From assembly GCA_027036775.1 (NCBI GenBank), contig JALWDS010000031.1, positions 1 to 64,000 on the forward strand: a stretch of 64,000 bases of DNA, written 5' to 3'. Positions 15,937 through 59,499 of the stretch are shown one piece after another (positions within the stretch are counted from its first letter, which is position 1; each line of letters begins with the position of its first letter). Source of the stretch: Archaeoglobaceae archaeon. Lineage in GTDB: Archaea > Halobacteriota > Archaeoglobi > Archaeoglobales > Archaeoglobaceae. Made by a program: the position numbers and the translations under genes. The notes beneath the pieces are model-generated. The model searched no databases. It was not told the origin of the DNA and worked only from the letters and a program-made list of their open reading frames with translations.

Positions 15937-16458
15937 ATGAGGATGTTGATTTTGATACTGATAACGGCACTTCTCCTTACGGGTTGCTCCCAGAAGGTCG
16001 AAAGGAATCTGGTTGTTAAAAGCGTGTTCGAAAATGGTGGTTACATTCCGAAGAAATACACATGCATGGGCGAGAACGTCAATCCACCCCTCTTCTTTCA
16101 AAACTTAAGTCCCAAAGCTAAGAGCATTGTAGTGATCGTTGAGGACGTTGACGCAAACGGATTTACCCACTGGATAATATACAACGTTCCGCCGATCGAC
16201 AAAATTCCAGAGGGAGTTCCAAAAGGGAAGTTCATAGAAAAACCTTTTAAGGCTATTCAAGGCAAGAACGACTTCGGATTCTACGGCTACGGCGGTCCTT
16301 GTCCACCTTCTGGAGTTCACAGATACTACTTCAGAGTTTACGTCCTCGACAAAACTCTCGAATGGAAGGAGTTCAGCAAGGAGAAACTCATGAAGGCAAT
16401 TGAGGGACACGTGATACAATACGGAGAGCTGATGGGTAAGTTTTCCTTTAAATCATAA
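15937..16458 (+). CDS. YbhB/YbcL (PEBP) family lipoprotein
   Basis: A 173-residue phosphatidylethanolamine-binding-like protein. Family motifs are YTCMGENVNPPL, IVVIVEDVDAN, THWIIYNVPP and GPCPPSGVHRYYFRVYVLD. The N-terminus is a signal peptide ending in a lipobox (LLTGCSQ), so it is probably anchored outside the membrane. PEBP-family function in archaea is not settled. The CRISPR array begins about 50 bases after the stop. Confidence 0.88.
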   Translation: MRMLILILITALLLTGCSQKVERNLVVKSVFENGGYIPKKYTCMGENVNPPLFFQNLSPKAKSIVVIVEDVDANGFTHWIIYNVPPIDKIPEGVPKGKFIEKPFKAIQGKNDFGFYGYGGPCPPSGVHRYYFRVYVLDKTLEWKEFSKEKLMKAIEGHVIQYGELMGKFSFKS

Positions 16459-16510
16459 TTTCAATTTTTATCTATACTGAATTGAGCGAATATACACTAA
16501 AGAAATATCC

Positions 16511-17214
16511 TTATCAATCCTAGTATAGTCTGATTTTATCATTTCAAGGCGACTTAAAATATCTTCCGAAAGACTTTCCTTTCAATCCTAGTATAGTCTG
16601 ATTTTATCTTTCGAAGCGGAACGTGATAACTAACGACGGTTACAAGCTTTCAATCCTAGTATAGTCTGATTTTATCTCCTCCTTCTTCCAAGGAGCTGGG
16701 AACTCTATCTCGCTTTCAATCCTAGTATAGTCTGATTTTATCAGCCGTTCAGAACCTTCAAAATTAGTGGCTAATTTTTCTTTCAATCCTAGTATAGTCT
16801 GATTTTATCGCGATAGGAATAATTAAGAAGTATTTGAGGATTTATACTTTCAATCCTAGTATAGTCTGATTTTATCAGCTGTATAACAGTCCTCTCGTGA
16901 TCGCATGTAGGTTCTTTCAATCCTAGTATAGTCTGATTTTATCAACCTACTGAACTCAAGTCGATGCTCAAATATGTCATCTTTCAATCCTAGTATAGTC
17001 TGATTTTATCCATTGTATATGTTTTCGTCCCAAAAGCTCTTTGGTAAATCTTTCAATCCTAGTATAGTCTGATTTTATCACAAGCTTGCATGGTCTGCTT
17101 ACGAGTTGGCATTGCTCTTTCAATCCTAGTATAGTCTGATTTTATCTATAATTAACAGCACTCTTATTGTTTCTTATTAAATCCCTTTCAATCCTAGTAT
17201 AGTCTGATTTTATC
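16511..17214 (-). CRISPR. CRISPR array 1: 11 repeats, 10 spacers, leader on the right
   Basis: Repeats are 30 bp. In the transcribed minus direction they begin GATAAAATCAGACTATAC and end TAGGATTGAAAG. Starts on the plus strand are 16511, 16579, 16647, 16713, 16780, 16847, 16914, 16981, 17050, 17117 and 17185. Spacers are 36-39 bp. Ten repeats look identical. The leftmost (16511) has two changes in its ATTGAAAG end, as expected for the old, leader-distal end. The ATTGAAAG tail is the usual 5' handle region in archaeal type I systems. The leader begins right after 17214. Confidence 0.98.
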
Positions 17215-17500
17215 TGTGTAGTTATTGAGGAGATTTTTGAATAAAAAGGTTTCGGAGTGTTTTGATTATTTAAATACGATCTGGCAAGTCTGATAATGCA
17301 CTTCATTTATAAAGATGCCAGACTTTTATCCCTCCCTTCTTTTCAAAATTGACGACCCGTCAACCGATTAAATCAAATTTAAAACCCTGTCCCCTTGGCA
17401 ATCCCGAAAAATAATTTCCTCCTACCCCCTTTCCCCCATCCGAGAAAATGTAAATTATATCCCTATACTATCCAAAACCCTTATTTTTTAATGCCAGACC
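17215..17500 (-). promoter_or_regulatory. leader of CRISPR array 1 (inverted copy of the array 2 leader)
   Basis: About 285 bp that matches 25957-26241 in inverted orientation with only scattered differences. Reading toward the array, a TATA-like CTTTATAAATG lies about 92 bases before the first repeat and should start the pre-crRNA. TGCCAGAC-type motifs occur at 17279 (inverted), 17315 and 17492, the last close to the cas4 start. The element therefore probably serves both the array and the outward cas4-cas1-cas2 operon. The 39 bases from 17501 to cas4 hold nothing else that I can see. Confidence 0.85.
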
Positions 17501-17539
17501 AAACGAAAAGCTTTTCTTTGTCCTTATCAGACATCACAA

Positions 17540-18037
17540 ATGCTTAAAGAGATGTATATCAGGGGAGTTCAGGTAAACTACTACTTCGTTTGCAAGACTA
17601 AACTCTGGCTTTTCAGTCACAACATAGGATTTGAGAACGAAAGCGATCTCGTCAAGCTTGGGAAGATTCTTCACCTTGAGGTTTACGACAGGCTTAGTAA
17701 GGACGTTCGTATAGGCCCCATAGCAATCGATGCCGTTAAGGTTGGAGATACTGTTGAAATAAGGGAGATTAAAAAGTCGGATAAGCTTGAGAAGGCTCAC
17801 GTCTTTCAAACCCTGTATTATCTGTATTACCTCAAAAAGCACGGGATAAGGGCAAAGGCCATTTTGACCTATCCTAAACTCAAGAAAAGTGTTGAGCTCG
17901 AATTGAGTGAGGATGCTGAAAACGAAATCAACGATTTGCTTGAGAGTATTGAGAGTGTAGTTAAAGGTGAGATGCCCAAACCGAGCTACAAGAGTCAATG
18001 CAGGAGATGTGCATACTACGAGTTCTGCTTCTCTTAG
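17540..18037 (+). CDS. cas4: Cas4 RecB-like nuclease
   Basis: Adaptation nuclease that trims prespacers and helps choose PAM and orientation. The 165-residue protein has an N-terminal Cys ([10 protein letters not shown]), the nuclease motifs AIDAVKV and [12 protein letters not shown], a QTLYYLYYL helix with the Q-x3-Y pattern, and the C-terminal cysteines [10 protein letters not shown] for an Fe-S cluster. First gene of cas4-cas1-cas2. The start lies 40 bases beyond the leader repeat. Confidence 0.95.
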
Positions 18038-18045
18038 GTGGTCCT

Positions 18046-18996
18046 ATGAAGAGGAAAAACTTCTACATTTTATCGGACGGTAAGTTGATCAGAAGGGAAA
18101 ACACGCTTTACTTCGAAAACGAGGACGGTAAAAGGCCTATTCCAATAAATTCGATCTACTCAATATACGCTCTGGGTTCCCTAAGCGTAACGTCCAAAGC
18201 TTTATCTCTCTTGGCTAAGGAGGGTGTGTGCATTCACTTCTTCAACAGATACGGATTTTACGAGGGCAGTTTTTACCCGAGAGAAACTCTTATCTCTGGA
18301 GATTTGTTGATCAAACAGGTGGAACACTACTTGGACGAAGAAAAGAGGTTGTATCTCGCAAGATGTTTCGTTGAGGGGGCTTTGAGGAACATGAACAGGG
18401 TTCTCACCCCATACGGTTTGAGCTTGGATTTCGAGTTGGATGATGTTGATAACGTTAGGGAACTGATGGGATTCGAAGCCCTTGCAAGGCAGAGATACTA
18501 CGGCTATCTCGATGAAATTTTGAAGAACTTCGATTTCGGAGTGAGGAGTAAGAGACCGCCGAAGAACGAGATAAACGCAATGATAAGCTTTGGAAACTCC
18601 CTTCTCTACTCAACCGTTCTATCTGAACTGTATCACACACAGCTGAATCCAACCGTGAGCTACTTGCACGAACCCTTTGAAAGGCGTTTCAGTTTGGCCT
18701 TAGATATAGCGGAGATTTTCAAACCGTTCGTAGTAGATAGGCTCGTAATATACCTCGTCAACAAGAGGATAATTAAAGAAGACGACTTCAACAGGGACTT
18801 TAACTGCGTTCTTCTGAACGAAAACGGTTACAAAAAGTTTATCAAAGCTTACAACGAGAAGCTCGAATCCACGATCAAGCACAGGCAGTTGAAGAGGAAT
18901 GTTTCCTATCAACGGCTCATTAGGTTGGAGTGCTACAAGCTGATAAAGCATCTTTTGGGAGTTGAAAAATACAGACCTTTGGTAATCTGGTGGTAG
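18046..18996 (+). CDS. cas1: Cas1 CRISPR integrase
   Basis: Integrase of the Cas1-Cas2 complex that inserts spacers at the leader end. I start it at ATG 18046 ([12 protein letters not shown]), with GGTGGT just upstream; the ORF-track start at 17998 lies inside cas4. Metal-binding residues are visible in [11 protein letters not shown] (Glu), SYLHEPF (His) and [10 protein letters not shown] (Asp/Glu). 316 residues is usual for type I-B Cas1. cas2 follows after 1 base. Confidence 0.97.
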
Positions 18997-18997
18997 T

Positions 18998-19261
18998 ATG
19001 TTCGTTATTTTGGCTTACGATGTAAACGTAGAGAGGGTCAATAAAGTTAAAAAATTTTTAAGAAGATACTTAAACTGGATTCAAAATTCGCTCTTCGAAG
19101 GAGAGATTAGCGAGGCAGACTTGGAGGAGATAAAGGTAGGTCTGAAGAAGATAATAAACGAAAGCGAAGACATGATCGTGATCTACAAGCTCAGAACAGA
19201 TAGGGTTGTAAAGAGGGAGATAATGGGTTTGGATAAGAGCAAGACCGATGAGATAATTTAA
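18998..19261 (+). CDS. cas2: Cas2
   Basis: Small ferredoxin-fold protein (87 residues) that forms the core of the Cas1-Cas2 integrase. It begins MFVILAYDVNVERVNKVKKFLRRYLNWIQNS, with the conserved Asp in YDVN and the NSLFEG segment. The start is one base after the cas1 stop, so translation is coupled. Last gene of the adaptation operon. Confidence 0.96.
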   Translation: MFVILAYDVNVERVNKVKKFLRRYLNWIQNSLFEGEISEADLEEIKVGLKKIINESEDMIVIYKLRTDRVVKREIMGLDKSKTDEII

Positions 19262-19311
19262 TTGTATGCGTTTATCGGAAGTTTTATCGTTTGCAATACG
19301 GTAATTTTTGT

Positions 19312-19431
19312 ATGCTTGAAAGTAGAAATCTTGCGGAAGCTTTACTTCTAAATGAGAAGCTGAGGAAAAAGTCTAAGATAGATACGACTGAAATCATCAG
19401 AAATTGGATGGACGGTAGAATTCAGTTTTGA
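19312..19431 (+). CDS. possible 39-residue protein between cas2 and the HEPN gene
   Basis: ATG 19312 to TGA 19429-19431 encodes a mostly helical, charged peptide (MLESRNLAEALLLNEKLRKK at the start, ending MDGRIQF). A TATA-like GTTTTATCG about 28 bases upstream could support a leaderless transcript. Its 3' end overlaps the old reading frame of the HEPN toxin on the other strand. I do not recognise it; a degraded antitoxin is one possibility. Confidence 0.35.
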   Translation: MLESRNLAEALLLNEKLRKKSKIDTTEIIRNWMDGRIQF

Positions 19432-19767
19432 TGTTCTAACTCTCTAAGAACGTTTTCAATTTTAGGTCTTAGCTCTTTAAGGTGTTTTCTTATAACCGTC
19501 CAGACTATACTCAAATCGACCCTCGTGAATAACGATATTTCTAAATCCGCCAATCTTTTTCCATGGTATATCTGGATACTTTGAGCGAAAATCTTCAGGT
19601 ATGTTTTTCAAAGCTTCACCTATTATCTCAAGGTTTCTGATTACCGCATCAACAACTAAATCGTTTTTAACAAAATCGTCAAAATCCATGTCCTTTGTGT
19701 ATTTCTCTATCTTCTCAATGCACTCTAAGATGTCGTAAAGAAACAACCTAACGTCTCTTTTAGACAT
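19422..19767 (-). pseudogene. hepT: HEPN (HepT-like) toxin with frameshift after the RNase motif
   Basis: HEPN RNase of a HEPN/MNT toxin-antitoxin pair. The open frame (19477-19767, 96 aa) is normal up to GGFRNIVIHE, the RX4H RNase motif, and then ends in an unrelated tail, GRFEYSLDGYKKTP. In the next frame the expected C-terminus continues as VDLSIVWTVIRKHLKELRPK and runs to a stop at 19422-19424. Compared with the usual HEYFGVDL, about eight bases are missing right after HE. The loss covers the tyrosine that MntA-type antitoxins modify with AMP. It may be an inactive gene, or the shifted product may act differently. It overlaps the MNT gene by 8 bases. Confidence 0.8.
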
Positions 19768-20056
19768 AAACGACTTCCTCTTTTATGTATTTCCAGAGCA
19801 AAGGCTTTCTAACGACTCCACCTTTCGGAACTAGATCTACCTTTATACCTAATATCTTTTCAAGGTATTCTTTGAGATCGACGATCTCCCAGCCGATAGG
19901 CTTTTCGAATTCGACTAAAGTATCTACATCGCTAACTTCTGTCTGCTCGTTTCTCACATAAGAACCGAATATCCCAATTTCTTTGACTCCAAATTTCCTT
20001 TTCAGTTCTTCTTTATGCTCTCCTAGGATTTTCTTAATCCCTTCCAACGTTTTCAT
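19760..20056 (-). CDS. mntA: MNT-domain nucleotidyltransferase antitoxin
   Basis: Minimal nucleotidyltransferase of 98 residues. The catalytic signature is IGIFGSYVRNEQTEVSDVDT (GSx10DxD), with a third acidic residue expected in IKVDLVPKGG. In characterised HepT/MntA pairs this enzyme adds AMP to a tyrosine of the toxin. Here the partner gene is frameshifted at exactly that site. It lies upstream of hepT and overlaps it by 8 bases. Pairs of this kind are often carried inside CRISPR loci. Confidence 0.88.
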   Translation of the reverse strand: MKTLEGIKKILGEHKEELKRKFGVKEIGIFGSYVRNEQTEVSDVDTLVEFEKPIGWEIVDLKEYLEKILGIKVDLVPKGGVVRKPLLWKYIKEEVVYV

Positions 20057-20089
20057 AGTTTTAGTATTCGTTTAACAGTTGATAAAATT

Positions 20090-22309
20090 TCAGTATATCA
20101 ATGCATTCTCTTGGCAGATATCTATTTGATCCAAAAACCCTGATAACTTCTCTGTATCAAAATAACCAATCTCATGAGAATATTGAAATCGTGGATTTAG
20201 CAAAACTGGTATATTACCTATTTCACCAATTGAATCTTGATTTAGACTGTCAATTATCCACCATATTGGAACTGGAGTGAAATATTCTTTAATCCTTCGT
20301 AACCTATACTTTTCATCACTATTAAGAATGTCCATTATCGTTGTTCTAAAGCATTTTGGAATTATCAAAGCTGTATTAGTGTCTCTAAACTTTAGGAGTT
20401 TGTTTAATTCATTATCTGTTAAATCGATTGAAAAGAAGTATTTAGTATCGTTTTCCCACTTTTCAATATACCTTTTAATTTCTCCTAATTCATTTTGATC
20501 TAAATCCAGAGGATTTTCTCTAAAACGTTTTATCAAAATTAACTCATTTTTAATCCTATCTTCCAACCGTATTAGTTCGTTAAAAGTTGCTTTGATTTCT
20601 TCCTTTTTGTAGGGATACCTCTTACCTTCGTCAATATCCTTGGGATAAAATATACTAACGTTTACACTCTTTGTGTAGTTTGAGTATCTGTTTACTCTGC
20701 CAAATCTCTGGATTAATGACGGTATTGGAGCTACTTCCGTAAATAAGTAATCAAAAGACACATCGAGACTAACCTCTGCAACTTGTGTAGAAACTAACAC
20801 AAAGCCTTTTGGTAGTCTTGATAGTTCTTCTAAACGAATTTCTTTATCTCTCCTGTCACGATAGGTAAATCGAGAATGTATTAGAATCATTCTCTTGAGA
20901 TTGTATTCGTTTTTCAGTAGTAGATACGTTTTAATAGCCTTTTCAACCGTATTACACAAAACTAAAACGTTACAGTCTTCAGCCTTTTTAACTATTGCTC
21001 TCAACGATTCATCTTCGGTTATGTCTGAGGGTTCAACATTATACAGATACCTTCTTTTCTTCTCATATTCATTGATGAATTCAAATTTTACTAAACTGGT
21101 GTATTCATTAATCAATTTTTCCAAATCGGGATGAGAAGTTGCAGACATGAAAATCGATTTAATATTGTATCCGAAATTTTCATTAAATTTCTTTATAAAG
21201 TTTAGTAAGATATACAATCCATTAATTGGATAGGCATGGAACTCGTCAAATACAAATACAGAATTTCTAAAGTGGAATCTCTTTAAAAAGTATTTACCAA
21301 CATGCAAAAAGCTTAAAATAATCTGATCCAGAGTTGTTATAGTTATTGGACTCATAAATGATTTCGAAATGAACATATCGAAATCAACAACTGATTCGTT
21401 ACCTTCACGAAGTTTTTCAACATCCGCAAAATAATAGTTCTCTTCAACTCTACAGTTGAAAACCTTGCTAAGCGTGTCCTTCATCTTTCTTATTGACGTT
21501 ATAGTTGGCAAAACGTAAATTATATGTCTTGGATTCCTATTTAGGGCAATCGTTAAGGATGCAAAAGTTTTACCCCACCCTGTTGGTGCTGTTAATAACA
21601 CGTCACCTTTTGTATTAGCCATCTTGCAAAAGATTCTCCACCGATTTTGATCGAATTTTAATCCTTTCGACCTTATGTATTCTTTGATATTTGATTCTAT
21701 TTGGCTTTTGCTGAAACTTGCGATCTCTTCGAAGATCACGTTATCTTTTTCAAACATGGCTGAGATAATGTCCGCAGTTTTGAATATACCAAACAAATCT
21801 GCGTAAACGACGTTGAGATTTAAATCATTTAATTTTTCCTGTAATTGCACCAATGCCGAGTAAATCTGTTTTATTATATAATTTGCTTTTTTATTTATTT
21901 CAAACTTTGTTTCTTTTGTAGCTCGTCTTATATATCTCAATATTTCTCGACATTTTGGAGGAGAAGGACAAGTATCTTCTAATTTCAAATGAGAGTGATG
22001 TTTCAAAATTAGATAGAAAAGTATCGGATCAAAGTTCTCAGAGTGATTAAGATACATATACGCTGACAATGCAGAATGTGGTGGATTTTTGTCGTTATCT
22101 ATGCTCCACTTAGGATTTAACTTACCTATGTCATGCCAATCCGCAAGAGCATCGATTATATCCCTAAATTTTAGTAGATCATGTTTTTTAGCCAGTAAAT
22201 ACGATATTTGCTTAATTTCTTCAATATGTTCATAAAGTGGCTTCATTATTCCATTTTTCTTATGGGATGCCTTTGATAGGTTATCTAGTCCTAAAGATGC
22301 AAAATCCAT
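20090..22309 (-). CDS. cas3: Cas3 with N-terminal HD nuclease and helicase
   Basis: Degrades DNA flagged by Cascade. The HD domain has EHIEE, DWHDIGK, PHSAL and KHHSH in the first 120 residues. The SF2 helicase has Walker A LLTAPTGWGKT, DEFH in VFDEFHAYP, MSATSHP (motif III) and LIQRFGRVNR (motif VI). I start at ATG 22309 (MDFASLGL), which has GAGGTTATGAT just upstream; the ORF-track start at 22330 overlaps cas5. Last gene of the effector operon and visibly AT-rich compared with cas1 or cas6. Confidence 0.95.
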   Translation of the reverse strand: MDFASLGLDNLSKASHKKNGIMKPLYEHIEEIKQISYLLAKKHDLLKFRDIIDALADWHDIGKLNPKWSIDNDKNPPHSALSAYMYLNHSENFDPILFYLILKHHSHLKLEDTCPSPPKCREILRYIRRATKETKFEINKKANYIIKQIYSALVQLQEKLNDLNLNVVYADLFGIFKTADIISAMFEKDNVIFEEIASFSKSQIESNIKEYIRSKGLKFDQNRWRIFCKMANTKGDVLLTAPTGWGKTFASLTIALNRNPRHIIYVLPTITSIRKMKDTLSKVFNCRVEENYYFADVEKLREGNESVVDFDMFISKSFMSPITITTLDQIILSFLHVGKYFLKRFHFRNSVFVFDEFHAYPINGLYILLNFIKKFNENFGYNIKSIFMSATSHPDLEKLINEYTSLVKFEFINEYEKKRRYLYNVEPSDITEDESLRAIVKKAEDCNVLVLCNTVEKAIKTYLLLKNEYNLKRMILIHSRFTYRDRRDKEIRLEELSRLPKGFVLVSTQVAEVSLDVSFDYLFTEVAPIPSLIQRFGRVNRYSNYTKSVNVSIFYPKDIDEGKRYPYKKEEIKATFNELIRLEDRIKNELILIKRFRENPLDLDQNELGEIKRYIEKWENDTKYFFSIDLTDNELNKLLKFRDTNTALIIPKCFRTTIMDILNSDEKYRLRRIKEYFTPVPIWWIIDSLNQDSIGEIGNIPVLLNPRFQYSHEIGYFDTEKLSGFLDQIDICQENALIY

Positions 22310-22311
22310 AA

Positions 22312-22968
22312 TCATAACCTCAAAAAACAATCGTAAAGTGGGACACCACCGATCACATTAACCTTCTCCTTTAGTTTAAACTTAACGTTTAGTCCCATTA
22401 CGACCGTTTTTGGCAATCCTGTATACACATAAGGCAAATTGTAAACGATACTGTTTTCTGTCATTTCTAAAGAGCCAAAAAGATTTTGCGGTAAGTATGT
22501 ATTTTCGATTTCATCCGTTTCTTCGTATTCGTCATAGAGCTTTGGATTTTCGATATCAAAAAAGATAAAATCGTTAATTCCCGCATAAGGGACGAATTCG
22601 AAATCAAATTCGTTAATTCTTTTATACAATTTGTCAATTGTCTCCTTGTTGCCCCATATAGCGTATCTGTATTTTGGTCTAAACAATATTATTAACTCTT
22701 CTGTTGTTCGTTCTTCCCTACTTCTTTTTAGCTTCAATAATTGTGCGTTTTCTCTACATACTCCTTTAATTTCGAGCAACCTTGCACCAGCTTTAAACTT
22801 AGTTCTTTCTTTAATGTATTCTTCTCGACTTTTTCCAAGAATTGAAAAGAAAAAGCCTATTACTGTAGTTGGTAGAGGTATAAGATAAGATACTCTACTT
22901 TTCATCGTCGTATGAACTCTAAAATGTGCTAAGTCGAAGAGAACATCAACCGTCAATCCCCTTTCCAT
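22312..22968 (-). CDS. cas5: Cas5 Cascade subunit
   Basis: A RAMP-type protein that caps the 5' handle of the crRNA in Cascade. The N-terminus reads GLTVDVLFDLAHFRVHTTMKSRVSYLIPLPTTVIGFF, a recognisable Cas5 start with a beta strand followed by PxPTxxxG. 218 residues is usual. It overlaps cas7 by 16 bases and ends 2 bases before cas3. AT-rich like its neighbours. Confidence 0.9.
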   Translation of the reverse strand: MERGLTVDVLFDLAHFRVHTTMKSRVSYLIPLPTTVIGFFFSILGKSREEYIKERTKFKAGARLLEIKGVCRENAQLLKLKRSREERTTEELIILFRPKYRYAIWGNKETIDKLYKRINEFDFEFVPYAGINDFIFFDIENPKLYDEYEETDEIENTYLPQNLFGSLEMTENSIVYNLPYVYTGLPKTVVMGLNVKFKLKEKVNVIGGVPLYDCFLRL

Positions 22969-23837
22969 TCACCTCTCACCAACCATTTTGCCATCTTTTC
23001 TATATCTTCACTTGGAACAATACCCGACTTTAAGTCATAAACTTCCAATAATTTTTTGCTGTCATCTTTACTTAAATCCGGTTTTGTGAATGTGTTATTA
23101 TCAACATCTATTTTTTTCCAAATTGGATACAGCTTTTCACCACAGTAAACTATTGCAGAAACATGCTCAGCCATTGTAAAGAAATTAGCCCTTCTCGGAT
23201 ACGCCCAACCTTCGTTGAGTAGAATCTCCAATAATGCCTTTACTCTGTTCATTCTTTCATCATCGTCCAACTTATAGCCACCATTGATTCTTTCAAGCTT
23301 TCCATCTTTTATGTATTCATCCCATTTTTTCAGCTGATCGGTTTTTTCACTTTCAGCAAATATACCACATCTTTCAGTAATCACAATTTTCATCAAACCT
23401 ATAAAGTCCGCAACCTCGATTTCAAACGGTGTTGGATTTGCTTCACCCAATTCTCTTGGAAATCTACCTCCAAAATCGATTTGTATTGGTGTGTGTTCAA
23501 TTGCCACGATTGGAGACATCGAAATCGGTGAGACTCTCGCTTTTTGCTGATTTCCTTTAATGTAAAGATACCCAAACAAATCATTATCAACATATTCTAT
23601 AGGATCTCCGCTGTCCGCTAACTTGTTTCCTTCACCAATCCTAAAAGGATCAACTTTAAACCCAAATTCCTTGAGCTTTTCTCTAATTCCCCTTTTCACA
23701 GCTCTGGCAGAAACGAAAGGGTATGTCTCTCCACTTGCTGAAACCAACTTTTTAATTCTAATTCTGTCGCCTTCAACTTCGTTTGCGTTCACATTTCCCG
23801 AAATATGTGTTAAAAGTCCAATAACTATTTTTCTCAT
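22953..23837 (-). CDS. cas7: Cas7 Cascade backbone (DevR/Cst2-like)
   Basis: RAMP protein that lines the crRNA in Cascade. It begins MRKIVIGLLTHISGNVNANEVEG, followed by SASGETYPFVSARAVKRGIREKL, a characteristic Cas7 segment. 294 residues. It overlaps cas8 by 4 bases and cas5 by 16, which fits the tight effector operon. Confidence 0.92.
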   Translation of the reverse strand: MRKIVIGLLTHISGNVNANEVEGDRIRIKKLVSASGETYPFVSARAVKRGIREKLKEFGFKVDPFRIGEGNKLADSGDPIEYVDNDLFGYLYIKGNQQKARVSPISMSPIVAIEHTPIQIDFGGRFPRELGEANPTPFEIEVADFIGLMKIVITERCGIFAESEKTDQLKKWDEYIKDGKLERINGGYKLDDDERMNRVKALLEILLNEGWAYPRRANFFTMAEHVSAIVYCGEKLYPIWKKIDVDNNTFTKPDLSKDDSKKLLEVYDLKSGIVPSEDIEKMAKWLVRGEWKGD

Positions 23838-25165
23838 TGCTTTCCACCTCCCACATAACTATTCCAAAGAATTACAATGAATTCGTTTTTCACTATAAAG
23901 AAATCTCTAATTGGCAGTGTTACAAGGTCTTGAGGAATCGACACTTTAATATCCTCCCTTTCCAACCTTGGCAGATAGGAAACCAGCTTTTCTACAAATG
24001 TTATAGGCGTTTCTTCACTTTTTAAGTCGAGGATTATCCTTTTCAACAAGCTCTTTTGTGTATCTCCTTTGTTAGCTAGCTTTCCAATTTCAAAAGCTAT
24101 AGCTTTCATCTGTTTTCGCAAATTTTCAAGACCACTCATAGCATCACCTCCAAAAAACTTTGATTGGACGTAATCTACGTAGTAGATTTTACTAAAATTA
24201 TAATCTGGTCTTTCCCTTTTAGCTCTAAACTCTAGCGAGATTTTTTCACTTATAGCCTGTGATAACTTTTGAACGTTTAAGTAGCCTTCAATTAGGATTG
24301 AAAAGGCTAAAGATGAGAGTAGCGAGTAATAAGACTCAACTATGTTTTGGTTTTGTAGTCTTGGCGGTTTTAACGACTCCAAAAATATAACGAATTTGAA
24401 TTTTAGATTATCTGTTAAATCATCATCGCTAAAAAATAAATCGTACAATCTTTTAAGGTTTACAATTGGGTGATAGATGGATGTCCATTTATTTCCGCCA
24501 CTGTTATTTAAGATAAGAGTTTCAAAGTTTAAATTTTGGATATTATCACCTCTAAATTTTAAATCCTCCATGATAATACAAAGTAAAAATAAAAGGGTAA
24601 AGTAAGCTGAAGTAGGATATACTGGCAATTCGTAGGAAATATCCCCATCAATATACGTTCTTGTGATTTTGCCAACCTTTAATTTAAAATCGTAAATTCC
24701 TCCAACTTCTCTTAAGCTCCTTATAAGCTTTTCAAGGTCTTTATTCTCACTCCTAATTCCGACGATTGTCCTTTGTTTTAACTTTTTACCCTCAAGTCTA
24801 ATTAAATCAAGATAATAAAAAGACAGTAACCAATTTAGTATTTTTTCCTTAGATTTTTCGCTTACATCCATTTTATAATCAGAGAAATGATAGTTAGGGG
24901 CTTCACTTTTTTGCAAAATTGTTGGAAAATGAGATGAACTTATATCCTTAGTTTCCATTAAATAGTCTAACACAATTTTTGCACAATCCTCTATACAACT
25001 TGCTTCCTTAAAACGTTTAGATATATTTGGTATTGCTCCGGATAAAACAGCATTTAATAATCCATCAAAATCTATTGGTATTTTTCTGTCTTTGCCACTA
25101 TCCTTTTTCCAACCGGCCCAACGAATCCTCTTTAGTATTAACTGCTCTAAACTCTTTCCACTCAT
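23834..25165 (-). CDS. cas8: Cas8 large subunit, type I-B-like
   Basis: A 443-residue protein in the position of the PAM-recognising large subunit, between cas6 and cas7. I see no catalytic motif, as usual for Cas8. The call rests on size, operon position and overlap with cas7. Subtype I-B is inferred from the cas6-cas8-cas7-cas5-cas3 and cas4-cas1-cas2 content. The sequence is very AT-rich (for example 14 G+C in the 60 bases from 24541), unlike cas6. Confidence 0.78.
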   Translation of the reverse strand: MSGKSLEQLILKRIRWAGWKKDSGKDRKIPIDFDGLLNAVLSGAIPNISKRFKEASCIEDCAKIVLDYLMETKDISSSHFPTILQKSEAPNYHFSDYKMDVSEKSKEKILNWLLSFYYLDLIRLEGKKLKQRTIVGIRSENKDLEKLIRSLREVGGIYDFKLKVGKITRTYIDGDISYELPVYPTSAYFTLLFLLCIIMEDLKFRGDNIQNLNFETLILNNSGGNKWTSIYHPIVNLKRLYDLFFSDDDLTDNLKFKFVIFLESLKPPRLQNQNIVESYYSLLSSLAFSILIEGYLNVQKLSQAISEKISLEFRAKRERPDYNFSKIYYVDYVQSKFFGGDAMSGLENLRKQMKAIAFEIGKLANKGDTQKSLLKRIILDLKSEETPITFVEKLVSYLPRLEREDIKVSIPQDLVTLPIRDFFIVKNEFIVILWNSYVGGGKQ

Positions 25166-25189
25166 ATTATTACACCCAACTCGGAAATA

Positions 25190-25897
25190 TCATACCACTT
25201 TCACCATTCCAAATCCCATGCTATTCCTCTCACCAAACCCAGCCTTGTAACCCAACTCAAGCAACTCCTTGCTACCTTCGGCTTTGAAGACCATCTCCAC
25301 GCATCTGTGGTAGGTATTTTTAACTTTAATTCTTTTCGGTTTAACCTTCAGAGGTTTGATGATGAGATCGGTGTTCTCTGGCACTTCTCCACGTAAAGCT
25401 ATATACTTCCTTATCAAGTTCCTTTTTAAGTTTTCGTAAAACTTCGGATCGTTCGGGTAGAGATCGTAGGGCCTGCCATCTTTTACGGTCGTAACGTTTA
25501 TAGGGGAAAGAGTAGCGAACGTTGCTTTATTTTTAATTTCGTGCTCCTTTAAGACTTTAACGCTCGATACAACCAACTCTAAACTCCCTATTTTCACGTT
25601 GGGGTCTTTGAGCAAGCCCTCAACAAAACTCTCCGCTATCTCTGGTTTTGGTGTTGAAAAGTAGAGGTTGACCACATCGCTCTCTATTATCATCTTATCT
25701 CCAACGATCTTAAACTTCCTCCTTGGAACGTCTATCCTGCTGAATGTGAAAAATTTGAATCCGTTGTTAAAGTGCAGACCCAACGAAAGCCAAGGGTCCG
25801 ACAGCTTTATACACCTATACACAAAGCTCGCCACGTAGTAATTGTAGTTAACGTCAATTGTGTTTTCGATCACGTTAAACTCCACCTTGAGTCTCAT
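25190..25897 (-). CDS. cas6: Cas6 pre-crRNA endoribonuclease
   Basis: Cuts the repeat to release crRNAs. The 235-residue protein ends in the glycine-rich loop LGYKAGFGERNSMGFGMV. The segment LHFNNGFKFFTFSRI near residue 41 contains the likely catalytic His. First gene of the leftward operon. Its start is about 60 bases from the leader repeat, and its base composition is more like the chromosome than cas8-cas3. Confidence 0.95.
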   Translation of the reverse strand: MRLKVEFNVIENTIDVNYNYYVASFVYRCIKLSDPWLSLGLHFNNGFKFFTFSRIDVPRRKFKIVGDKMIIESDVVNLYFSTPKPEIAESFVEGLLKDPNVKIGSLELVVSSVKVLKEHEIKNKATFATLSPINVTTVKDGRPYDLYPNDPKFYENLKRNLIRKYIALRGEVPENTDLIIKPLKVKPKRIKVKNTYHRCVEMVFKAEGSKELLELGYKAGFGERNSMGFGMVKVV

Positions 25898-25956
25898 ATC
25901 TAAACGCTATCCTTTGTAGTAGATAACCCTTGTTGAATTTAGATACCTTTCCGACG

Positions 25957-26241
25957 ATCTGGCGTTTTAAAATAAGGGTTTTGGATAGTATAGGAATATA
26001 ATTTACATTTTCTCGGACGGGGGAATGGAGGTAGGAGGAAATTATCTTTTGGGATAGTCAAGGGGACAGGGTTTTAAATTTGATTTAATCGGTTGACGGG
26101 TCGTCAATTTTGAAAAGAAGGGAGGGATAAAAGTCTGGCATCTTTATAAATGAAGTGCATTATCAGACTTGCCAGATCGTATTTAAACTTCCAAAACACT
26201 CCGAAACCTTTTTATTCAAAAATCTCCTCAACAACTACACA
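25957..26241 (+). promoter_or_regulatory. leader of CRISPR array 2 (inverted copy of the array 1 leader)
   Basis: Inverted near-copy of 17215-17500; differences are scattered substitutions, denser at the end away from the array. A TATA-like CTTTATAAAT at 26142 lies about 92 bases before the first repeat, so transcription should enter the array rightward. TGCCAGA-type motifs occur at 25957 (inverted), 26132 (inverted) and 26169. The 59 bases between 25898 and 25956 carry the cas6 upstream region and nothing else that I can see. Confidence 0.85.
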
Positions 26242-26931
26242 GATAAAATCAGACTATGTTAGGATTGAAAGTCGGTTGGGTGCGGGGGGTAAAAAAACAA
26301 AAAAATGAGATAAAATCAGACTATGTTAGGATTGAAAGCTGATTTGAAAGGTATTTTAAAAGGAGAATTGTATAAGATAAAATCAGACTATGTTAGGATT
26401 GAAAGATAATTGTCAATATACGACACGTGAAGCTCTCCGTTGATAAAATCAGACTATGTTAGGATTGAAAGTATGTTAAACCCAAAGCTTATTAAAAAGA
26501 GTAACAGAGATAAAATCAGACTATGTTAGGATTGAAAGATCAGACGGTAGAGTAAGCTGTTCTATCAGACCACTTGCCAGATAAAATCAGACTATGTTAG
26601 GATTGAAAGTTGAGTATATCCCCTACAACATCGTTAGCCATATCCAGATAAAATCAGACTATGTTAGGATTGAAAGACTGTATGCAAATGTGGGTAATTT
26701 TTGAACGGGCATTGATAAAATCAGACTATGTTAGGATTGAAAGGTGCTCTTGCCAAAGAGCTAAAACTTCCTTTCTTGAGAGATAAAATCAGACTATACT
26801 AGGATTGAAAGAAAATTGACGGCGTTAATAAGATCGCAATACCAGTGATAAAATCAGACTATACTAGGATTGAAAGATACAATCGCCGACTACGATTGTT
26901 AGGTTGTCATGTGATGATAAAATCAGACTAT
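26242..26931 (+). CRISPR. CRISPR array 2: 10 full repeats plus a truncated one, 10 spacers
   Basis: Repeats are 30 bp, starting at 26242, 26309, 26376, 26442, 26509, 26580, 26647, 26714, 26782, 26847 and, truncated, 26916. The first eight contain CTATGTTAGG. The two before the truncated end contain CTATACTAGG, as in array 1. The last copy stops after GATAAAATCAGACTAT and runs into the end of cobY. Spacers are 35-41 bp, with the fifth (41 bp) the longest. The leader is on the left. Confidence 0.98.
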
Positions 26932-27474
26932 ATTCAAACTTGGGGCTATTCTGTTGGCCAATTCCAAGTCTTCGGGTGTATTCACGTTTAAAGAAAGGAG
27001 GGGATTTTTCAGTTCTAAAAACATCTCACCCTCAAAGCCGACGGCATTCAAACCGACCAATATCCAGCCTTTGTATTTTGGCAAGCTCTCGACTTTCACG
27101 AACTTGGGCACGATCTTCGGGTTTAAGACACCAGTTAAGCTTATCCCCCTAAAGTTTCTTGCTATCTCGTTGATGTCTTCAACCCTAACGAACGGAATAT
27201 CGCACGATAGACTTACAAATTCACCGAACTCCCTTAAGATGAACGTCACGTCTCGAACGTAACCTTCACCAGACGTTTCTATCGTTTCTATGCCTTGTTT
27301 TCTGCAGAATTCCGCCGTTTTGGGTGTGTTTTTGCTGACCGCAACGAAAACGTCCCCCACCTTGACAGCCTTTTCGTAAACCCAGAGTATCATTGGTTTG
27401 TTCCCAACCAAAGCCAACGGCTTTTCAAATCCCATCCTGCTACTCTTCCCACCGGCCATTATCACGATAAACAT
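26923..27474 (-). CDS. cobY: adenosylcobinamide-phosphate guanylyltransferase CobY
   Basis: Transfers GMP from GTP to adenosylcobinamide phosphate in archaeal cobalamin assembly. The nucleotide-binding N-terminus is MFIVIMAGGKSSRMGFEKPL; later LSCDIPFV carries the metal-binding Asp. I start at ATG 27474, because a TATA-like TTTATAAAT lies about 27 bases upstream. The ORF-track start at 27528 would be upstream of that promoter. The last three codons and the TGA stop lie within the truncated CRISPR repeat, so the array remnant supplies the C-terminus. Confidence 0.93.
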   Translation of the reverse strand: MFIVIMAGGKSSRMGFEKPLALVGNKPMILWVYEKAVKVGDVFVAVSKNTPKTAEFCRKQGIETIETSGEGYVRDVTFILREFGEFVSLSCDIPFVRVEDINEIARNFRGISLTGVLNPKIVPKFVKVESLPKYKGWILVGLNAVGFEGEMFLELKNPLLSLNVNTPEDLELANRIAPSLNIV

Positions 27475-27569
27475 GTTCGCTAAGATTGTAAGATTATTTA
27501 TAAAACTGTTGCTTGCAAAATCTCGCACTTCAGAGGGGGGTTGGTGGTAGTTTTAAATATCTAAAATCT

Positions 27570-27752
27570 CTGGACTGGAATGTTTCCGATGACGCCCGTT
27601 AGGGGAAGAGTTAAGCAAACGTTAGCCCATCGGAATAACGAGTTCGATGGGATGGGGCTGTCGTGAGCCAGCCCCTAACTCCCGTATGAAGTCTGCCGTG
27701 AAGGCGGGTGGGACGGGTGAAGCTCCGCACTTCAGTGCGGGGAGTGTCATAA
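27570..27752 (+). mobile_element. remnant of an IS200/IS605-type right end (TnpB tail and omega-RNA-like structure)
   Basis: About 180 bases, richer in G+C than the surroundings, with no complete gene. One frame reads like a transposase tail (MTPVRGRVKQTLAHRNNEF then DGMGLS and stop); a second frame reads MKSAVKAGGTGEAPHF. Helices visible are CCCATCG/CGATGGG, GGGGCTG/CAGCCCC and a terminal hairpin with CTCCGCACT...AGTGCGGGGAG, which resembles the right-end hairpins of IS605 elements and the omega RNA of TnpB. The body of tnpB and the left end are absent. A TATA-like TTTTAAATAT at 27551 could drive it as an RNA. The stretch 27753-27826 is AT-rich with no gene. Confidence 0.5.
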
Positions 27753-27826
27753 AGGTGAGGTTCTATCGGTATGATCGCTTCGGAATAATTTTTAAATTTT
27801 TATATAAAATTGCTGTCCATCAACAT

Positions 27827-28363
27827 TTAAAAAGCATCGTAGAGCTTCTCCTTCCTCAAATACTCCCCCCTATCGATCAGATTCTCAACTACAACCCTAT
27901 CTTCATCCACATCCTTGAACCTACTCGCTGGGAACCTGCTTTTACCCAATCCGAGAACGTCTCCCTTCGAGTTGCAGACGAAAACGACATCGTTCTCCTC
28001 AACGTCTTTCGTAACCCTAACGACGGACCTCGCAAATATGTCCCTTCCGTAGAGGAAGAGCATCTCCCCCTTTTCATCGACGTAAACCCTCTTTTTATCC
28101 TTCTTGGCGAGATAGTAGGCTCCTTCAAGTGTGAATCTGAACCTTCTGCTCCCAACTTCCCCGACTTTGATACCCACGCACACGTAGTTCATCTTGAACC
28201 TACCAACGAAGTTCGAGAGTTCCCGAGATAGGGCGTAAGCCTCCCTTCTCCCTTCGGATTCCTTTATGAGAATCTCGTGATCTTCGAGAAAATTTTCAGA
28301 TCCGAAAGCTCTCAAAGCTGAGTTTAAAACCTTCTCCTCCCTCCTCTTTGGCTTTCTAAGCAT
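27827..28363 (-). CDS. Nip7-like PUA-domain ribosome biogenesis protein
   Basis: A 178-residue protein with an N-terminal domain and a C-terminal PUA RNA-binding domain (FTLEGAYYLAKKDKKRVYVD, EKGEMLFLYGRDIFARSV). This is the pattern of the archaeal Nip7 homologue (COG1374), which binds U-rich RNA and acts in large-subunit assembly. It overlaps the preceding hypothetical gene by 40 bases. Function in this organism is inferred. Confidence 0.75.
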   Translation of the reverse strand: MLRKPKRREEKVLNSALRAFGSENFLEDHEILIKESEGRREAYALSRELSNFVGRFKMNYVCVGIKVGEVGSRRFRFTLEGAYYLAKKDKKRVYVDEKGEMLFLYGRDIFARSVVRVTKDVEENDVVFVCNSKGDVLGLGKSRFPASRFKDVDEDRVVVENLIDRGEYLRKEKLYDAF

Positions 28364-28728
28364 CTCCTCACCACACTGTAAAGGTCAAATCTCATAAAAG
28401 TCTCAACCGTGTTTATCACAACCTCCCTACCTATCAAATTGAAATCTCCCATACTTTCTGGAAGGACAACCTCTCCGTTTCTCGAGAACTCGTAGCCCTC
28501 CATGTTCGGTTCCAATCCAACTATTAGATAGCTCTTCCTGAAGAAGAACGGTCTCGCCTTCTCACCTAAGAACCTTATCTTGGCGTAGGTTTCGTTTGCA
28601 ATTATAGATGTGTTCGAGTATATAGCATCTATATTTATCCCAACCTCGTTCCTGTCCAATTCGGAGCTGAACCCACCGACCTTGCTAACGTATAGATCGG
28701 TAGCTATTTCCATCGGGTAGTCGAACAT
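28324..28728 (-). CDS. conserved-looking hypothetical protein
   Basis: About 134 residues. I use ATG 28728; the ORF track starts one codon earlier at TTG. No motif is recognised. The protein is acidic with alternating strands and helices, contains FGEKARPFF-like and VETFMRFDLYSVVRRC segments, and ends in a basic RGGRRRF. The 40-base overlap with the Nip7-like gene suggests coupled expression and perhaps a role in RNA or ribosome work. A TATA-like ATGTATATAAC lies about 20 bases upstream. Confidence 0.7.
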   Translation of the reverse strand: MFDYPMEIATDLYVSKVGGFSSELDRNEVGINIDAIYSNTSIIANETYAKIRFLGEKARPFFFRKSYLIVGLEPNMEGYEFSRNGEVVLPESMGDFNLIGREVVINTVETFMRFDLYSVVRRCLESQRGGRRRF

Positions 28729-59279: not shown

Positions 59280-59499
59280 TATCCTCCCCTCCGTATTCCC
59301 TTAGATCTTCTGGTCCAGCCCCTTCACACGGCTTCAAAATTAATTCCTTAAGCTTCGATTTCTCCCTCTTCCCCGCAAGATAATTCAAAATCGCATCTAT
59401 AATCGCTTCTTTCACGGTCTTCCCTTCCTCTACTGCCCTCTTCTTTAACTCAGTGTAGAGTTCCTTAGGCAAAACTACGCTCGTCTTTATTTCATTCAT
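59272..59499 (-). CDS. vapB: VapB-like antitoxin
   Basis: A 75-residue protein with an N-terminal ribbon-helix-helix segment (KTSVVLPKELYTELKKRAVE) and an acidic C-terminus (GAGPEDLREYGGEDID) that should wrap the toxin. Upstream of vapC with an 8-base overlap, the standard VapBC layout. Confidence 0.85.
   Translation of the reverse strand: MNEIKTSVVLPKELYTELKKRAVEEGKTVKEAIIDAILNYLAGKREKSKLKELILKPCEGAGPEDLREYGGEDID

What the first reader, a model, noticed from the sequence alone, without database searches (positions are those of the whole stretch)
26916..26931. Truncated CRISPR repeat supplies the cobY stop codon
The final repeat stops after 16 bases and the following sequence is cobY. The last cobY codons and TGA stop are read from the repeat on the minus strand. 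The array end was fused to cobY by a deletion or insertion that replaced the original C-terminus.
Basis: seen in the sequence. Interest (0 to 1): 0.6.

Follow-up and report, generated by a model that had tools for sequence, protein, structure and literature searches.

The report
CRISPR repeat caps a vitamin gene
In this heat-loving archaeon the cut-off last repeat of a CRISPR immune array supplies the final codons and stop signal of a vitamin B12 gene, and a second B12 gene elsewhere in the genome, next to it in a CRISPR-less sister species, also ends inside a CRISPR repeat; the array was spliced between host genes and changed only a few dispensable residues.

Summary
Array B of a type I-B CRISPR-Cas island (10 full 30-nt repeats) ends in a truncated repeat. 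The match is 19 nt rather than 16 (26916-26934), identical to a repeat variant used in arrays on another contig. The last three codons of cobY (N-I-V) and its TGA (26923-26925) lie inside it. However, CobY tails are variable beyond the conserved core in all eight homologues, and A. profundus's own tail is out-of-frame ppcA sequence, so only about three dispensable residues changed and no 'original' end is preserved. Beyond the finding, a second gene, cbiZ (contig C2), also takes its last five codons and stop from a CRISPR repeat. cobY and cbiZ are convergent neighbours in A. profundus. Two further A. profundus neighbour pairs (cofC/PEBP, hemB/aspC) are split by CRISPR leader and trailer ends here, and a fourth pair flanks the fourth locus. 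Best reading: CRISPR loci were spliced between host genes, trimming gene tails, and later leader-to-leader recombination moved about 8.3 kb of host genes between CRISPR loci. Direction and reads remain unverified.

The parts
26916..26934 (+). truncated leader-distal (terminal) repeat of array B, 19 nt identical to the ATATT repeat variant; its complement encodes N-I-V-stop of cobY
26923..27474 (-). cobY (adenosylcobinamide-phosphate guanylyltransferase), 183 aa from the ATG aligned with homologues; stop TGA at 26923-26925
26877..26915 (+). last spacer of array B (39 nt), followed by the truncated repeat, which lacks the 3' part ATTGAAAG
26242..26876 (+). CRISPR array B, 10 complete 30-nt repeats and their spacers
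25969..26241 (+). leader of array B (273 nt); further copies, 91-95% identical, at the other arrays of this genome, one split across contigs C2 and C34
25190..25897 (-). cas6
23834..25165 (-). cas8b (type I-B)
22953..23837 (-). cas7 (type I-B)
22312..22968 (-). cas5b
20090..22330 (-). cas3
17998..18996 (+). cas1 (type I-B)
17540..18037 (+). cas4
17215..17487 (-). leader of array A
16511..17214 (-). CRISPR array A; its trailer end faces the PEBP gene; the two array trailers point outward and bound the CRISPR-Cas island
15937..16458 (+). YbhB/PEBP-family gene; neighbour of cofC in A. profundus, here next to the trailer of array A

Best explanation
This is the leader-distal end of a type I-B CRISPR array fused to the 3' end of cobY. 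A CRISPR-Cas island with two outward-pointing arrays came to lie between the convergent genes cobY and cbiZ. At both borders the outermost repeat became the end of the gene: cobY ends N-I-V-stop inside a truncated repeat, and cbiZ (now on contig C2) ends L-S-I-L-T-stop inside a complete repeat. Because the complement of the full repeat has a stop in all three frames, capture gives a clean stop whatever the frame. Only residues beyond the conserved CobY core changed, so CobY is most likely functional and the overlap is a tolerated scar. Shown: the junctions, the stops, the gene order in A. profundus, and the split neighbour pairs. Inferred: that later recombination between near-identical CRISPR leaders separated cobY from cbiZ, by moving the 8.3-kb block cofC...cbiZ out of the cobY locus into the array between hemB and aspC; and that cobY still works.
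For: Junction and stop. Second captured gene cbiZ at G000:C2:59287-59316 (protein ...ALEKSV|LSILT*), Pfam CbiZ E 8.8e-42. cobY and cbiZ convergent neighbours in A. profundus (G015 262967-263524 + and 264377-263763 -). A. profundus identified by its chromosome length of 1,560,622 bp and stated to lack CRISPRs (PMC3035285); no repeat or leader found in it. Other A. profundus neighbour pairs split here: cofC/PEBP, hemB/aspC, DUF1152/gatE around the C1 array. Leader/trailer polarity fits one array each at cofC/PEBP and hemB/aspC and an outward-trailer island at cobY/cbiZ. Leaders of A, 1 and 2 share at most 79 nt exact, while the C2 and C34 contig ends overlap by 125 nt, so assembly chimeras between those leaders are unlikely. 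CobY tails variable after the ...LD column.
Against: No reads were available; the genome is a 48-contig draft. The C2-C34 join rests on a 125-nt overlap that also occurs in the C1 leader, though both C1 flanks are neighbours in A. profundus. The direction (gain here or loss in A. profundus) is unresolved at cobY and at cofC, because A. profundus carries a ppcA fragment at the cobY site and an unusual cofC tail; only hemB favours gain here. The order of rearrangements is a model: A. profundus and this genome also differ at breakpoints without CRISPR (TPR/YjbQ, cobY/NIP7).
Confidence: 0.75

Rival explanations
1. The terminal repeat merely decayed in place: the array always ended beside cobY, the last repeat lost its 3' part by mutation and drift (usual at leader-distal ends), and cobY's stop drifted into it.
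For: Degenerate leader-distal repeats are common (PMC4869251); all but one of the array ends in this genome are truncated or altered in the 3' part of the last repeat.
Against: The 19 kept bases are perfect and the break is abrupt, with cobY-homologous sequence directly behind it. The same capture happened at cbiZ with a complete, undecayed repeat. cobY and cbiZ are neighbours without an array in the sister.
Confidence: 0.15
2. The arrays were present in the common ancestor at these sites and A. profundus lost all CRISPR loci by deletion, so the joined gene pairs in A. profundus are the derived state. (This concerns direction only and is compatible with the junctions described.)
For: CRISPRs occur in relatives (A. 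fulgidus three, Ferroglobus twelve; PMC3035285) but not in A. profundus; cofC/PEBP and hemB/aspC adjacency was not seen within 1.5 kb in the other family genomes read; the A. profundus cofC tail overlaps PEBP and is unusual.
Against: The A. profundus hemB keeps a tail (RWMKEGFDW) resembling that of another genus of the family (KWFNEGSL), while the window genome has the shortened RWFG beside the leader. No leader or repeat trace is left in A. profundus.
Confidence: 0.4
3. Misassembly: the junctions join reads from different strains or loci across repeats.
For: Draft genome; one leader junction is broken between contigs C2 and C34 at a 125-nt repeat.
Against: Two separate genes on two contigs show in-frame, repeat-supplied ends; both are orthologous up to the border. 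The leaders that would have to be confused share at most 79 nt exactly. A chimera could affect the inferred block move, but hardly the 19-nt repeat-cobY border.
Confidence: 0.07

Closest known systems
Leader-distal degenerate terminal repeats of CRISPR arrays (as handled by CRISPRDetect, PMC4869251)
   Same: last repeat at the old end of the array is altered in its 3' part
   Different: here the remnant is perfect for 19 nt, ends abruptly at coding sequence and serves as the last codons and stop of a host gene
CRISPR loci at inversion and rearrangement borders in Thermotogales (De Boy et al. 2006, as reviewed in PMC5052741)
   Same: CRISPR loci sit at synteny breaks between related genomes
   Different: here gene order in a CRISPR-less sister shows which ends belonged together, and leaders look like the crossover sites
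Divergent family I CRISPR arrays around a cas module, and the 1.9-kb pseudo-spacer SiL-E1, in Sulfolobus islandicus LAL14/1 (PMC3718332)
   Same: two oppositely oriented arrays flank cas genes; an oversized insert lies precisely between repeats
   Different: here the insert is 276 bp with a small ORF that also ends in a repeat, and the array borders overlap host gene ends

Membership tests
CRISPR-Cas type I-B | type I-B effector genes (cas8b, cas7, cas5b), cas3, cas6 | tested here: met
   PADLOC Cas8b 6e-144, Cas7b 8e-40, Cas5 (I-B) 1e-16, Cas3b, Cas6
CRISPR-Cas type I-B | adaptation genes cas1, cas2, cas4 | tested here: inconclusive
   cas4 and Cas1b found; cas2 was not looked for separately
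CRISPR-Cas type I-B | arrays of repeats and unique spacers with a leader | tested here: met
   30-nt repeats, 35-41-nt spacers, leader copies
Terminal (leader-distal) CRISPR repeat | in register with the array, at the end away from the leader, 3' part altered | tested here: met
   69 nt after the previous start; leader at the other end; 19 of 30 nt kept
CobY, adenosylcobinamide-phosphate guanylyltransferase | sequence similarity to proven CobY and a complete core | tested here: met
   best solved relatives are CobY 2mzb and 3rsb (8.6e-16, 7.5e-15); NCBIfam CobY 83.7 bits, below its strict cut-off of 250
CobY, adenosylcobinamide-phosphate guanylyltransferase | enzyme activity | not testable with these tools
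   needs expression and assay
CRISPR-mediated chromosomal rearrangement | gene ends that are neighbours in a relative are separated by CRISPR sequences here | tested here: met
   three pairs (cobY/cbiZ, cofC/PEBP, hemB/aspC)
CRISPR-mediated chromosomal rearrangement | crossover within the homologous leaders or repeats | tested here: inconclusive
   polarity of all six ends fits; no mosaic breakpoint was pinned down in the leaders

The most novel reading that the evidence does not exclude
CRISPR leaders act as portable homology in this lineage: a block of host genes (cofC to cbiZ, about 8.3 kb, with an array) was excised by leader-leader recombination beside cobY and reinserted at the leader of another CRISPR locus, while each array border trimmed and capped host genes (cobY and cbiZ by repeats, hemB next to the leader) with new stop codons.
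Probability: 0.35. Interest if true: 0.62.

Novelty: new variant of a known kind. Interest (0 to 1): 0.45.

Why it matters
How CRISPR arrays come to sit at new places in a chromosome is rarely visible. Here a CRISPR-less sister species with contiguous gene pairs at the corresponding sites of all four CRISPR loci gives near single-base borders, shows that host genes can take their stop codons from repeats without losing their core, and makes leader-driven gene movement testable by PCR or a closed genome. It also means that array transcripts may run antisense into cobY and the reverse, with no gap between them.

Tried and rejected
(1) Chance match: rejected, 22 matches against 0.01 expected, in register with the array. 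(2) Loss of a functional CobY C-terminus: rejected, the tail is unconserved. (3) A. profundus cobY as the preserved ancestral end: rejected, its tail is ppcA sequence. (4) Plain insertion of one array between cobY and cbiZ: rejected, both genes face trailer ends, so an island with two outward arrays or two events is needed. (5) Leader or repeat relics in A. profundus: none. (6) Outgroup gene order: close cobY orthologues occur only in some genera; hemB/aspC and cofC/PEBP adjacency was not found within 1.5 kb in the other genomes read. (7) Scan of genome contigs with CobY found only a distant WOR-3 hit. (8) Rfam: nothing in 16000-28500. (10) Literature on a repeat-supplied stop codon: nothing found in the held library.

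Full report
Observation. The window (G000:C31:1-64000) lies in a 1.53-Mb draft genome of the family of Archaeoglobus. Its closest held relative, G015, has a chromosome of 1,560,622 bp, the published length of Archaeoglobus profundus AV18, which 'completely lacks any CRISPRs' (PMC3035285). Array B has ten complete 30-nt repeats at 26242-26876 and then GATAAAATCAGACTATATT at 26916-26934, in register. Shuffled sequence gives 0.01 such matches in the window. cobY runs on the minus strand and ends AAT-ATA-GTC-TGA (N-I-V-stop), entirely inside these 19 bases.

What was replaced. The A. profundus orthologue is 75% identical over its whole length and ends KLD-TSWA* against SLN-IV* here. In eight homologues the last shared feature is A..(L/I/V)(D), here with N for D; what follows ranges from one residue to more than twenty without similarity. 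Solved CobY structures align only to residue 194 of 201 in the long-start numbering. So the junction touched only a free tail. The D-to-N change may itself come from the repeat, since AAT belongs to the 19-nt match. The A. profundus tail is not the original either: TTGGGCTTAAGT... is the start of a ppcA fragment read in another frame, and the A. profundus cbiZ tail overlaps the other end of that fragment on the opposite strand (inference).

A second captured gene. On contig C2 a complete repeat (59287-59316, minus) follows cbiZ directly. CbiZ reads ...ALEKSV and then LSILT-stop from the repeat; Pfam confirms CbiZ at 8.8e-42. In A. profundus cobY and cbiZ are convergent neighbours. So the two genes whose 3' ends face each other in the sister are each capped by a CRISPR repeat in this genome. 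The complement of every full repeat variant has a stop in all three frames, which explains why capture ends a gene cleanly. On its other side the same C2 repeat also ends a small ORF (...LRDKIRLC*) lying in a 276-bp insert between two repeats.

The set of borders. Six leader matches exist: A and B in the window, 1 and 2 on C2, one on C1, and one on C34 that continues leader 2. Reading outward, PEBP faces trailer A, cobY trailer B, cofC leader 1, aspC trailer 1 (with about 1.2 kb of small genes between), cbiZ trailer 2, and hemB leader 2. In A. profundus the pairs are cofC/PEBP (overlapping 3' ends), cobY/cbiZ and hemB/aspC (about 50 bp apart). The fourth locus, on C1, lies between DUF1152 and gatE, also neighbours in A. 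profundus. The polarity is consistent with a single array at cofC/PEBP, a single array at hemB/aspC, and the whole cas island with outward trailers at cobY/cbiZ. One excision between the cofC leader and the cas4-side leader, followed by insertion at the hemB leader, would turn that order into the one assembled. This is inference; the two genomes also differ at breakpoints without CRISPR.

Assembly check. The ends of C2 and C34 overlap by exactly 125 nt, so stretches of that length stopped the assembler. Leaders A, 1 and 2 share at most 79 nt exactly, so confusion among them is unlikely. The C1 leader does share 127 nt with the C2 and C34 ends, but the C1 flanks are neighbours in A. profundus, which supports that contig and leaves C2-C34 by elimination. 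Reads were not available.

Direction. hemB argues for gain in this lineage: A. profundus RWMKEGFDW resembles the tail in another genus of the family, KWFNEGSL, whereas here the gene ends RWFG beside the leader. cofC argues the other way: the long A. profundus tail overlapping PEBP is unusual, and the third species of the genus (G016) ends RM. I leave the direction open for cobY.

System. The cas genes are type I-B (Cas8b 6e-144, Cas7b, Cas5b, Cas3, Cas6, Cas4, Cas1b). The truncated repeat lacks ATTGAAAG, the end that in such repeats is expected to become the crRNA 5' handle (general knowledge), so the last spacer probably has no downstream processing site; no test was possible.

Known ground. 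Decayed leader-distal repeats (PMC4869251), CRISPR loci at rearrangement borders in Thermotogales (cited in PMC5052741), and divergent arrays with an oversized spacer in Sulfolobus islandicus (PMC3718332) are all described. I found no report of a repeat serving as a host gene's stop, but the held library is partial. Verdict: real, explained in outline, mild for cobY itself, and of moderate interest as a clean record of CRISPR loci being spliced among host genes.

Noticed in passing
G000:C2:59287-59316 (L046:10788-10817): Complete CRISPR repeat fused to the 3' end of cbiZ, giving its last five codons and its stop; a second case of the same phenomenon.
   Followed up: yes
G000:C2:59317-59592 (L046): 276-bp insert between two repeats with an 84-aa charged helical ORF of unknown family whose stop also lies in the repeat; resembles the pseudo-spacer reported in Sulfolobus islandicus.
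   Followed up: partly
window 27600-27760: Stretch 77% identical over 73 nt to sequence beside the C1 array, looking like an end remnant of an IS200/IS605-type element (by eye); it lies between cobY and the NIP7-like gene, another synteny break against A. profundus.
   Followed up: partly
window 19477-20056: HepT-like and nucleotidyltransferase (MNT) pair, a likely toxin-antitoxin module, inserted between the adaptation and effector cas genes.
   Followed up: partly
G015:C1:263503-263829 (L041): C-terminal ppcA fragment between cobY and cbiZ in A. profundus; both gene tails there overlap ppcA sequence, so the same site was rearranged in both species.
   Followed up: partly
G000:C1:12999-13014: The C1 array also ends in a repeat keeping exactly the first 16 nt (GATAAAATCAGACTAT) followed by TGAAAG, a possible shared break point inside the repeat.
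   Followed up: no
G000:C2:43544-47044 (L080): gyrA reading frame of 1167 aa that matches A. profundus from residue 548 on and carries an intein-like sequence near its start (RYCVTFDTLI...).
   Followed up: no
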